64,000 nucleotides of DNA, taken from the NCBI GenBank assembly GCA_031317595.1, contig JANCMB010000001.1, forward strand, positions 2,235,610 to 2,299,609. Reading direction: 5' to 3'. Position numbers and translations under genes: made by a program. Position 1 is the stretch's first letter. Each line of letters begins with the position of its first letter. The stretch comes from Glutamicibacter sp. PS. GTDB taxonomy: Bacteria > Actinomycetota > Actinomycetes > Actinomycetales > Micrococcaceae. Shown here in pieces: positions 40,036-45,103 of this stretch. Below the pieces are notes generated by a model. The model searched no databases. It was given only the letters and a program-made list of their open reading frames with translations, and was not told the origin of the DNA.

Positions 40036-40040
40036 GATCT

Positions 40041-40063
40041 TTCGCCACGATTACTGTGGCGAA
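40041..40063. repeat. Perfect inverted repeat, 8-bp arms
   Basis: TTCGCCAC (40041-40048) and GTGGCGAA (40056-40063) flank GATTACT. It lies directly after the preceding hairpin and before the long nested repeat, inside the region between two convergent genes. It may be part of a bidirectional terminator. Confidence 0.6.
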
Positions 40064-40081
40064 TTATCGTATTGCCGCGTA

Positions 40082-40172
40082 AAAGGTGCATCGCACCCCC
40101 TACGAACGTGGATCAGTGATGGGGGCACTGATCCGTGAAAGATCGGTTCGTAGGGCGGCGCAATACACCTTT
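40082..40172. repeat. Long nested inverted repeat, three helices (91 bp)
   Basis: Three co-linear pairs of arms fold this segment into one long imperfect hairpin: AAAGGTG (40082-40088) with CACCTTT (40166-40172); CCCTACGAAC (40098-40107) with GTTCGTAGGG (40146-40155); GGATCAGTG (40110-40118) with CACTGATCC (40126-40134), around an ATGGGGG loop. All three pairings are perfect. It is not coding on either strand. Candidates are a structured RNA, a MITE-like element or a bidirectional terminator; the sequence alone does not decide. Confidence 0.65.
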
Positions 40173-40310
40173 AATCACTCCCGGAGCACCTATGACGCCA
40201 CTCGCAAAACATCATCGGCTTCCCGGTTGTGATCGGCTTTCCACCGATACATAACTAACCTATCGCGTCCGGCAAAAATGCGAAATCATACTTTAGTAGG
40301 AGGGTAGCGG

Positions 40311-41441
40311 TTAGAAAGGGATGGAGGCGCGCAGAATCCAGCGGTTTTCCGCGGTACAGGTGGTAAAACTGCCACCGAAGGTGTTCATCCTGTCTTTCAT
40401 TCCCAGTAACCCGCTACCGCCGTAGGGAAGCGAATTCGACTGCTTTCCATCGGCATTGGGCACGTTGATCATCTCGAGGACGGCAACGGCCCCATTCTTG
40501 GACAGATTCAAGGTCACCGGGGAGTTCGGCAGCGCATGTTTGATGATGTTCGTCGTCGCTTCCTGCATCACTCGATACAGCGCGGTTTGCGCCGACCGCG
40601 GCAGATGCGCAATTTCCTCATCCACGCTGGAGGTTACCGTAAAACCTGCTTCGCGCAGGCGGGTGCTAAAGACTTCGGCCCCGTGTACAACCTGCACGGT
40701 GGTGGCAGCCGGCGCACTGTTCTTCTCGCCCTGTCCGCTGCTCATCGTCCCGTCCGTGCGCAGCACATTGAGCATGAGTCGCAAGTCGTGCAGTGTCTCG
40801 GAACTCAGCTTGGATATCGTGTCCAAGGCATCGCGGGCGGTCTGCTCATTGCGTGCGAATTTAGCGGCCTTCGACTGCATGGCCACAATGGTGATGTCGT
40901 GAGCGACAATATCGTGCAAATCCCGCGCAATGTTTTTGCGCTCCTCACGTAGCGCCCGCTCCGCCTGCTCCTGGGCCTCGTTGAGGCGTCGCTGGTGCTC
41001 CGAATTTCGCTGGCTCAAGCGGAAAACACTGCGCGCGGCGACATAGGCGCCAAGGGCCAGTGGAACTAGGACCACCAGAATGAAGGCGGCATCGCCGGCG
41101 CGGATAACGCTATATGGTACCCAAAGAGCACTGAAGATCAGATACAGGGTGCGCACTCGAGGCTTGGTCGAACTAGCGGCCAACGCCATAAATACCAGCA
41201 GGGTGATGATCACCATCAGCGGATTATCGAACTCGCTGAGGCCTATATAGAGCGTGGCCAAATAAAGGCCCAGCGACAGCGTCAGCCAGCGCAAGGCCAA
41301 AAGTAGCTCAGCACAAATAATCAGCCCGACCACGGCACCGGTGATCGTGGCCTCCGACGACCCATCAATGCCGAACTCCAACAGAGTCATTAGTTCGGAG
41401 ACCGTGGTCGTCGCGATAAGGACAAGGCCGGACCAGATCAC
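40311..41441 (-). CDS. NarL-type sensor histidine kinase
   Basis: 376 residues from a GTG at 41441. Five or six hydrophobic segments (to about residue 140) are followed by a dimerisation domain with H176 in IARDLHDIVAHDITIVA (HisKA_3) and a HATPase with GGSGLLGMKDRM. The reading frame stays open upstream of the GTG with a convincing sequence (TRLFAVARWIRSLTITGRQ) but holds no ATG/GTG/TTG; a CTG at 41519 behind AAGGCAGG is a possible start. It is downstream of a secreted-peptide gene on the same strand and divergent from its response regulator. The sensed signal may be that peptide (inference). Confidence 0.92.
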   Translation of the reverse strand: MIWSGLVLIATTTVSELMTLLEFGIDGSSEATITGAVVGLIICAELLLALRWLTLSLGLYLATLYIGLSEFDNPLMVIITLLVFMALAASSTKPRVRTLYLIFSALWVPYSVIRAGDAAFILVVLVPLALGAYVAARSVFRLSQRNSEHQRRLNEAQEQAERALREERKNIARDLHDIVAHDITIVAMQSKAAKFARNEQTARDALDTISKLSSETLHDLRLMLNVLRTDGTMSSGQGEKNSAPAATTVQVVHGAEVFSTRLREAGFTVTSSVDEEIAHLPRSAQTALYRVMQEATTNIIKHALPNSPVTLNLSKNGAVAVLEMINVPNADGKQSNSLPYGGSGLLGMKDRMNTFGGSFTTCTAENRWILRASIPF

Positions 41442-41554
41442 TGCCTGACGGCCTGTGATGGTCAGTGACCTGATCCAACGGGCTACCGCGAAAAGACGCG
41501 TTCTTTTTTCCGTGTCCAGTGTGGTTAACCTGCCTTGTCTACTTCATGGGCGAT

Positions 41555-41731
41555 TTAGTCACAGTATTTGCCGTAGGTGCGGCACATCCAATCCCTGAAA
41601 TCATCGCCCCATCCGGCTGGCTGTGAAGCCTGACTGCCAGAACCACCATAAGCCGCGGAGGCAGGTGCTGCCAGCACCGCCACCGGAGCTACGGCCAACG
41701 CCAGCGCCGCGAGCATACTCCGAACTTTCAT
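41555..41731 (-). CDS. Small secreted peptide (58 residues) upstream of a sensor kinase
   Basis: The ATG at 41731 (an ATG directly before it is also possible) follows GGGGGATC and reads 58 codons to TAA. The N-terminus MKVRSM and hydrophobic residues 7-22 form a signal peptide ending ASA|AY after residue 26. The mature 32-residue part is Gly/Ser/Gln-rich, then DDFRDWMCRTYGKYCD with cysteines at 50 and 57, which could close an eight-residue disulfide loop. It lies 35-113 bp ahead of the kinase start on the same strand. No family is recognised. A pheromone, an effector controlled by the pair, or a small secreted factor are all possible. Confidence 0.75.
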   Translation of the reverse strand: MKVRSMLAALALAVAPVAVLAAPASAAYGGSGSQASQPAGWGDDFRDWMCRTYGKYCD

Positions 41732-41773
41732 CATGATCCCCCAACCTGATTACTTATATACTTCAAGACACCG

Positions 41774-41785
41774 CGGTCTAGACCG
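41774..41785. promoter_or_regulatory. Palindrome CGGTCTAGACCG between the divergent kinase and regulator operons
   Basis: A perfect 12-bp palindrome sits 42 bp from the peptide start and 27 bp from the response-regulator start. TATAC-like -10 elements flank it on both sides (reverse: TATATA near 41757; forward: TATACG near 41790). This is a natural place for the response regulator to control both directions. Confidence 0.45.
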
Positions 41786-41812
41786 GAATATACGAGCCAT
41801 CAGAGGACACCG

Positions 41813-42481
41813 ATGAACCAAATTAAAGTACTAATCGTGGACGATGAGCCGCTGATCCGCCATGCCTTGGGCACGATTCTATCAACGGATGAGCGTATTT
41901 TACTCGTAAATTCTCTAAATAACGGGAAAGACGCGCTGGAGTTTTGTGAGAAGAATGAGATCGATGTGGTCATCATGGATTTACAGATGCCCGTCATGGA
42001 CGGTGTTACAGCGACCGAGCACATCAAGAAGTTGCCGCACAGCCCCGCGGTGCTGGCAATAACCGCCTTTTCGGCCGACGACTACCTCGTGCCGGTGCTT
42101 CTGGCCGGCGCCAGCGGCTATCTGGTCAAGGACAGTGAACCCGATGAGATTGTCGACGCGGTTATCTCGGTGCATCAGGGTACGGCGGCCATCTCCCCTT
42201 CGGTGTCCAACGACCTCATCGGCGCGGTCAAACAGGCCTACAATCCGGTAAGCCAAAGAGAGCACTTGGCCAAGGAGTTAGCGCTCACTGCCCGCGAGCT
42301 CGAAATTCTAGACCTGCTGGCCAAGGGGCTGAACAATCCGGAGATCTCCCGGAAACTAGGGGTCGCCGAAACAACAATCAAGACGCACATGGCCAAAATC
42401 TTCGTGAAGCTCGATGTACGTGACCGGGTCCAGGTACTGGTAGAAGCGGCCCGGATCGGCCTGATTAATCTCAATCGTTAA
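41813..42481 (+). CDS. NarL/LuxR-type response regulator
   Basis: 222 residues. Receiver domain with D10, D11, phosphoacceptor D56 (IMDLQMPVMDG) and K in YLVKDSEPDEI; LuxR-type HTH near the end, ELEILDLLAKGLNNPEISRKLGVAETTIKTHMAKIFVKL. GAGGACACC precedes the ATG. It is divergent from the peptide-kinase operon and is its obvious cognate regulator. The base composition across this two-component block is more AT-rich than its surroundings. Confidence 0.94.
   Translation: MNQIKVLIVDDEPLIRHALGTILSTDERILLVNSLNNGKDALEFCEKNEIDVVIMDLQMPVMDGVTATEHIKKLPHSPAVLAITAFSADDYLVPVLLAGASGYLVKDSEPDEIVDAVISVHQGTAAISPSVSNDLIGAVKQAYNPVSQREHLAKELALTARELEILDLLAKGLNNPEISRKLGVAETTIKTHMAKIFVKLDVRDRVQVLVEAARIGLINLNR

Positions 42482-42562: not shown

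Positions 42563-45103
<2,541 letters not shown>

What the first reader, a model, noticed from the sequence alone, without database searches (positions are those of the whole stretch)
41555..41813. Secreted 58-residue peptide ahead of a two-component system: possible undescribed peptide-signalling or peptide-output system
Seen: a short gene on the reverse strand (41731-41555) with a ribosome site, a signal peptide ending ASA|AY and a mature part ending CRTYGKYCD, lies 35-113 bp upstream of a NarL-type sensor kinase on the same strand. The response regulator is divergent and starts 81 bp from the peptide start. Between them is a perfect palindrome CGGTCTAGACCG. The two cysteines could close an eight-residue loop like a cyclic pheromone. 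Inference: the peptide is either the signal sensed by the kinase or an output it controls. The gene is too short for ordinary gene callers and may be missing from annotations.
Basis: partly seen in the sequence, partly recalled or inferred. Interest (0 to 1): 0.87.

Follow-up and report, generated by a model that had tools for sequence, protein, structure and literature searches.

The report
Bacterial peptide pheromone with hypervariable receptor
A tiny gene next to a sensor-regulator pair makes a probably secreted peptide with a two-cysteine end; the peptide and its likely sensor vary together across many actinobacteria, as expected of a bacterial chemical language, though no activity has yet been tested.

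Summary
The 58-residue peptide gene (window 41731-41555, minus) lies between a HisKA_3 kinase and a divergent LuxR-type regulator in 18 of 18 Glutamicibacter genomes. Searching by kinase instead, 79 of 94 examined Micrococcaceae orthologues have a small leader-bearing Cys-loop ORF just upstream; the 15 without all belong to one genus group (Nesterenkonia) with a short gap. Loops differ widely (CRTYGKYC, CRNLGALC, CGFWGFFC, CYYVPFWC). Peptide core and kinase membrane sensor form one hypervariable cassette in well-conserved surroundings, e.g. 75% and 63% nucleotide identity against 97% (catalytic half) and 95% (regulator). A paralogous kinase in the same genomes shows far smaller contrasts. A sensor tree joins the three genomes of one loop type; a catalytic+regulator tree rejects that clade (p-AU 0.010). 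Best reading: a pheromone-receptor module working like comQXPA or agr but without their maturation genes in the module. In a Georgenia-related genus it stands beside a lanthipeptide synthetase gene. The palindrome is not conserved (1 of 18). Secretion, ring closure, ligand action and output are inferred.

The parts
41555..41731 (-). pre-pheromone gene, 58 codons (MKVRSMLAALALAVAPVAVLAAPASA|AYGGSGSQASQPAGWGDDFRDWMCRTYGKYCD)
   Evidence: conserved in 18 of 18 genus genomes; no Pfam or NCBIfam family above cut-off
41654..41731 (-). Sec-type signal peptide, 26 codons, ending ASA (by eye)
   Evidence: leader conserved in the alignment
41561..41584 (-). C-terminal Cys loop C-RTYGKY-C, the likely signal part
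   Evidence: both Cys, and the Trp two residues before the first, invariant in 18 and in 21 aligned peptides
41738..41742 (-). GGGGG, likely ribosome site
   Evidence: G-rich stretch at this place in the aligned genus sequences
41753..41760 (-). TATATAAG, conserved -10-like box upstream of the peptide gene (reading as promoter is mine)
   Evidence: present upstream of the peptide gene in 17 of 18 genus genomes (not L019)
40311..41519 (-). HisKA_3 sensor kinase, H-box RDLHDIVAHDIT; putative CTG start
   Evidence: HisKA_3 E 7e-16; AlphaFold2 mean pLDDT 82.4, pTM 0.51; best Foldseek matches DesK
41016..41453 (-). membrane sensor half of the kinase (five or six membrane-like helices, no outside domain seen), the hypervariable half
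   Evidence: helix count is my reading of hydropathy and model
41813..42481 (+). divergent LuxR/NarL-type response regulator
   Evidence: Response_reg E 3.5e-29, GerE E 2.6e-17
41774..41785 (.). palindrome CGGTCTAGACCG; present but not conserved
   Evidence: 1 of 18 genomes

Best explanation
The gene makes a peptide pheromone and the kinase next to it is its receptor. (1) The pre-peptide is exported by the Sec route and cut after AxA (inferred from sequence). (2) The two C-terminal cysteines close a small ring, most likely as a disulfide (inferred; a VKOR oxidase gene is in the genome). (3) The ring, whose residues differ between lineages and are often aromatic or hydrophobic, is sensed by the membrane half of the HisKA_3 kinase (inferred from joint hypervariability). 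(4) The kinase signals to the divergent LuxR-type regulator (inferred from gene order and families), which probably controls the peptide promoter and further genes. Shown: the module is widespread, and peptide core plus sensor behave as one variable cassette.
For: 18 of 18 genus genomes hold the gene in the same place. Of 95 kinase matches found without reference to the peptide, 94 were examined: 79 have a Cys-loop ORF just upstream, 69 of 69 outside genus group g13. With one fixed detector: 33 of 46 named loci with divergent regulator, 2 of 31 of other arrangement, 0 of 9 other HisKA_3 kinases of the window's genome; shuffled upstream DNA 33 of 920, 5 of 620, 4 of 200. In all 10 pairs with catalytic DNA identity of at least 85% the peptide core is less alike than the catalytic half, in 9 of 10 the sensor is; mapped along one genome, the fall runs from mid-peptide to shortly before the H-box. 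Control kinase, same 7 pairs: sensor minus catalytic -7 to +10 points against -13 to -34 here. Sensor tree 100/99.8 for the three CRY[LF]GA genomes; catalytic+regulator tree rejects them as a clade, p-AU 0.0103. Partial Mantel core~sensor given catalytic and regulator: r 0.52, p 0.0012 (n 14); r 0.25, p 0.017 (n 18); core~catalytic not significant.
Against: No transcript, peptide or activity data. Peptide and sensor are neighbours, so one recombination tract moves both whatever their function. 15 of 94 orthologues, all in g13, have the divergent regulator but no such peptide gene. Pair L007-L009 shows no sensor excess. The core~linker correlation is significant too, and partial Mantel p-values are known to run low (the caveat is recalled). 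In the variable block L058 is only 65-83% identical to L052 and 50-85% to L217, so no donor was found. Catalytic half and regulator are more alike (93-98%) than the control kinase (79-98%) in the same pairs, so the conserved parts may have been evened out by exchange. The peptide model is poor (pLDDT 58.9).
Confidence: 0.77

Rival explanations
1. The peptide is an output, a small antimicrobial or surface-active peptide, whose gene the two-component system controls; the kinase senses something else.
For: Secreted, short, Cys-bridged peptides are often antimicrobial (recalled); the gene shares its upstream region with the regulator; in Oceanitalea the module stands beside lanthipeptide genes.
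Against: No immunity or export gene lies between the three genes, and ten flanking ORFs sampled from eight loci of several genera share no common family. Joint variation of peptide core and sensor is not expected.
Confidence: 0.1
2. The peptide is an accessory or inhibitor of the kinase that acts only in the cell that made it, not a shared signal.
For: The same pairing and co-variation would arise; Nesterenkonia forms are about 50 residues with a membrane-like leader that may not be cut.
Against: AxA ends and variable linkers in the aligned peptides suggest release; allelic diversity between near relatives fits communication groups better.
Confidence: 0.1
3. Joint hypervariability reflects a recombination hotspot or foreign DNA, not ligand-receptor matching.
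For: Silent sites are raised too: pS 0.54-0.97 in core and sensor against 0.07-0.27 in catalytic half and regulator for L054-L056, L054-L058, L016-L019, so exchange with distant alleles is involved.
Against: The variable tract mapped in L058 begins in the mature peptide and ends before the H-box; a contrast by parts is seen in two genera; pN/pS stays at 0.17-0.42 in core and sensor.
Confidence: 0.03

Closest known systems
comQXPA (ComX-ComP-ComA) of Bacillus
   Same: HisKA_3 (PF07730) kinase with a many-helix membrane half, that half hypervariable against a conserved cytoplasmic part, polymorphic peptide (PMC4008528, PMC4408185: passages); small peptide gene before the kinase; LuxR-type regulator (recalled for ComA)
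   Different: No ComQ gene in the module, Sec-type leader, two-Cys loop instead of a modified Trp (recalled for ComX), divergent instead of same-strand regulator
agr (AgrBDCA) of staphylococci and relatives
   Same: small ring peptide near the precursor's end, multi-helix membrane receptor, matched specificity groups (all recalled)
   Different: No AgrB match in the genome; kinase is HisKA_3 and regulator LuxR-type; two Cys rather than one Cys in a thiolactone (recalled)
Double-glycine pheromones (ComC/Blp type)
   Same: short peptide beside a two-component system (recalled)
   Different: No C39 peptidase match in the genome; Sec-type leader

Membership tests
comQXPA | HisKA_3 receptor kinase with membrane-spanning N-terminal half | tested here: met
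comQXPA | LuxR-type response regulator | tested here: met
comQXPA | ComQ isoprenyl transferase gene beside the peptide gene | tested here: not met
   the genes around the peptide are kinase, regulator and ClpB/C-like ATPase, and the ORF after the kinase has no Pfam family; the rest of the genome was not searched for ComQ
comQXPA | pre-peptide without Sec leader, modified Trp near the end | tested here: not met
   leader ends AxA by eye; invariant Trp lies before a two-Cys loop; modification itself not testable
agr | AgrB membrane protease | tested here: not met
   no match at E 0.1 in the window's genome; none of the 14 control genomes passed the cut-off either, so sensitivity is unproved
agr | LytTR-type regulator | tested here: not met
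   Response_reg + GerE
double-glycine pheromone systems | C39 peptidase exporter | tested here: not met
   no match in the window's genome; 8 control genomes over the cut-off
peptide pheromone signalling in the broad sense | secreted peptide acts on its kinase in a dose-dependent way | not testable with these tools
   needs bench work
peptide pheromone signalling in the broad sense | peptide and receptor half vary together | tested here: met
   control

The most novel reading that the evidence does not exclude
A new, widespread class of actinobacterial pheromone: Sec-exported peptides closed by a C-terminal disulfide, with no dedicated maturation enzyme, read by HisKA_3 membrane receptors, split into many communication groups by exchange of a peptide-core-plus-sensor cassette, and in some lineages switching on lantibiotic production.
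Probability: 0.6. Interest if true: 0.9.

Novelty: new variant of a known kind. Interest (0 to 1): 0.82.

Why it matters
Peptide communication is best known in Bacillota (recalled). [quoted passage not shown] A compact three-gene pheromone module in several actinobacterial genera would make communication, group specificity and its evolution testable in harmless soil bacteria. Pairs of near-identical loci whose likely receptor halves differ are a natural set for mapping peptide-receptor recognition.

Tried and rejected
Rejected: the palindrome as conserved regulator site (1 of 18). Rejected as homologues: order-wide hits of the peptide profile outside the family, mostly leaders of longer ORFs. 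Three family hits with a TAG inside (L236-L238) showed no kinase and no peptide of this type. L025, a weak second hit in one genome, is a different ORF. A detector hit in L116 and L311 lies antisense in the regulator gene: it is not among the 79 of 94 but is inside the 33 of 46; by the same fixed rule that count misses L126 and L129, which do have the ORF. By the looser rule, judged by eye, it is 34 of 46 (not L111, L114-L118, L120, L121, L123, L125, L127, L139). Hits were also found with looser rules than and judged by eye. Class-wide kinase search (384 genomes): of 26 fetched loci outside the order, 25 could be scored, none with a Cys-loop ORF, 24 with a same-strand regulator. Order-wide search: ORF seen in L280-L284, L286, L288, L289, L292, L335-L337, L342 and perhaps L339; not in L285, L294, L296-L299, L301, L303-L305, L338, L340, L341; L287, L290, L291, L293, L295, L300, L302 were not scored; matches not fetched were not examined. 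The PDB search of the kinase model matched kinase cores, best DesK. The peptide model is too weak to use beyond one helix. Literature searches: no listed title or abstract start describes this module; some searches listed only part of their hits, and the library holds open-licence PMC papers only. Passages were read of PMC4748050, PMC4008528 and PMC4408185, nothing of the others. An earlier count gave 33 of 37 for L199-L235; one search shows 35 of 37. Entries 4 and 6 say 'no room' for the Nesterenkonia group; a short gap is all that is shown, since L337 fits a 46-codon ORF in a similar one.

Full report
1. Where it is. Contig lengths of genus mates equal those of Glutamicibacter- and Arthrobacter-named records, so the genus is Glutamicibacter. 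The kinase frame has no ATG, GTG or TTG before a GTG inside the first hydrophobic segment; CTG 41519 is the likely start. In 16 of 18 genus genomes, not in the window's, TTGACT lies between peptide and kinase, 36 or 37 bases before an ATG that follows a TTC-ended AT-rich box; I read this as a promoter of a leaderless message.

2. The peptide gene is real. A protein search found it in 18 of 18 genus genomes (17 relatives at E 1.2e-15 to 1.8e-8), between the same kinase and regulator, with a ClpB/ClpC-like ATPase gene after the regulator. Eighteen alignment columns are invariant, among them P, A, G, W, C, Y and C of PAGWGxDFxxWxCxxYGVxC. pN/pS is 0.35 for the peptide and 0.32 for its core in this genus. 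No Pfam or NCBIfam family covers the window peptide or seven from other genera above cut-off.

3. It is a family. The peptide profile found near-full-length relatives in three further genus groups; the 12 loci read (L049-L060) all have divergent regulator, peptide, kinase. The kinase alone gave 95 matches in 89 of 395 Micrococcaceae genomes; 94 were examined (one is cut by a contig end). 79 of 94 have a short ORF with hydrophobic leader and C-terminal Cys loop just upstream. The 15 without are all in genus group g13 (10 of 25 with; by named loci Nesterenkonia); 13 of the 15 were measured and have 666-774 bases from regulator match to H-box. Outside g13 it is 69 of 69, though for L229 no regulator was seen. 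Loop examples: CRTYGKYC, CRNLGALC, CRYFGAAC, CGFWGFFC, CERWGLFC, CTVFPFMC, CGWFPFLC, CYYVPFWC, CSFLFLRWC, CRAFPNASGC. Four genomes of group g6 carry two systems with different loops (L224/L225, L226/L227, L232/L233, L234/L235). Named carriers: Glutamicibacter, Paeniglutamicibacter, Nesterenkonia, Kocuria, Miniimonas, Oceanitalea, Ornithinimicrobium (taxonomy). In the class-wide search no case was seen outside the order in 25 scored loci.

4. Controls. One detector (leader-like start, K or R near it, two Cys at the end, fixed distance from the H-box) gave 33 of 46 named loci with divergent regulator (one of them, L116, false), 2 of 31 of other arrangement (3 more had too little upstream DNA) and 1 of 10 HisKA_3 kinases of the window's genome, the one being the locus itself (an eleventh had no recognisable H-box). 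Shuffled upstream DNA gave 33 of 920, 5 of 620 and 4 of 200. The two exceptions, L131 and L153, have regulator, peptide and kinase in one direction. Most linked kinases show AHx[ILV]T after the H-box (L329 has ADELT), but so do kinases without a peptide (g13; L296-L298, L303-L305), so this is no proof of linkage.

5. A hypervariable cassette. Among 18 Glutamicibacter and 14 Paeniglutamicibacter loci, 10 pairs have catalytic DNA identity of at least 85%: peptide core below catalytic half in 10 of 10, sensor below it in 9 of 10, the exception being L007-L009. Extremes (catalytic, regulator, core, sensor): L054-L056 98, 98, 75, 75; L054-L058 97, 95, 75, 63; L016-L019 93, 93, 62, 60. Pairs share members and are not independent. 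Along the DNA, L058 is 88-98% identical to L054 and L056 over regulator gene and signal sequence, falls to 53-83% from the middle of the mature peptide to shortly before the H-box, and is 92-100% over most of the catalytic half (L054 falls again to 72% near the kinase end). In that block L058 is 65-83% identical to L052 and 50-85% to L217: kin in the tree, not a recent copy. In a paralogous HisKA_3 kinase of the same six genomes, sensor against catalytic in seven pairs is 79/80, 88/88, 97/87, 88/95, 97/88, 89/93, 98/91: -7 to +10 points, against -13 to -34 for the peptide-linked kinase. The conserved halves of the module are more alike than that control in six of the seven pairs or equal to it nearly, so they may themselves have been exchanged. 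Silent sites rise in core and sensor too, which means exchange with distant alleles rather than fast amino-acid change alone.

6. Matching of peptide and sensor. Three Paeniglutamicibacter genomes have loop CRY[LF]GA[AG]C. The sensor DNA tree joins them (100/99.8); the catalytic+regulator tree puts one of them, L058, with CRNLGALC strains and rejects the three as a clade, p-AU 0.0103. The group was named from the peptide, but I had noticed the likeness before the test. Partial Mantel: core~sensor given catalytic and regulator r 0.52, p 0.0012 (n 14) and r 0.25, p 0.017 (n 18); core~catalytic r 0.09, p 0.33 and r -0.10, p 0.77; core~regulator r -0.16, p 0.79 and r 0.16, p 0.12; core~linker r 0.38, p 0.022 and r 0.41, p 0.0008.

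7. How it most likely works. A Sec-type leader with AxA end exports the peptide; the genome has a VKOR gene, so disulfide closure is plausible; AgrB and C39 peptidase gave no match. The AlphaFold2 kinase model (pLDDT 82.4, pTM 0.51) has five or six membrane-like helices and no outside domain, and DesK cores as nearest solved relatives. This fits a receptor that binds a small hydrophobic ring at the membrane. ComP of Bacillus is the precedent: HisKA_3, many helices, variable N-terminal half, polymorphic ligand (PMC4008528, PMC4408185, passages). Ten flanking ORFs from eight loci share no family, so the module seems self-contained. In Oceanitalea stevensii (L153) it stands just before a LanM gene (TIGR03897, E 5.7e-128), with two small ORFs that I read as lantibiotic precursors on either side of it; part of the same synthetase gene follows the module in L282 (identical, perhaps the same organism) and L284 (83%).

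8. What is not shown. Transcription, secretion, ring closure, binding, and the genes controlled. The neighbour position of peptide and sensor means that a joint swap alone does not prove contact. Verdict: a convincing new family of probable pheromone modules that works like comQXPA or agr but does not meet their membership tests on maturation enzyme, leader or regulator type.

Noticed in passing
window 41441-41519: The kinase has no ATG, GTG or TTG before its first hydrophobic segment; CTG 41519 is the probable start, unlike other species of the genus, which have an ATG.
   Followed up: partly
L153 4913-8515: Module beside a class II lanthipeptide synthetase gene and two small precursor-like ORFs (Oceanitalea stevensii); part of the same synthetase gene in L282 and L284.
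   Followed up: partly
L139 against L133, peptide region: Two Ornithinimicrobium records share the peptide start, but in L139 the frame departs before the C-terminal Cys end; frameshift or assembly error.
   Followed up: no
L306-L313, L315-L318, L328, L222, L223: Nesterenkonia-group kinases with divergent regulator but no Cys-loop peptide gene detected and only a short gap: a lost or other signal.
   Followed up: partly
window 42563-45103: ClpB/ClpC-like ATPase gene with TTG start, next to the regulator in all 18 genus genomes; relation to the module unknown.
   Followed up: no
window 40040-40185: Intergenic stretch with stem-loop-like repeats (GGATCAGTG...CACTGATCC) downstream of the kinase.
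   Followed up: no
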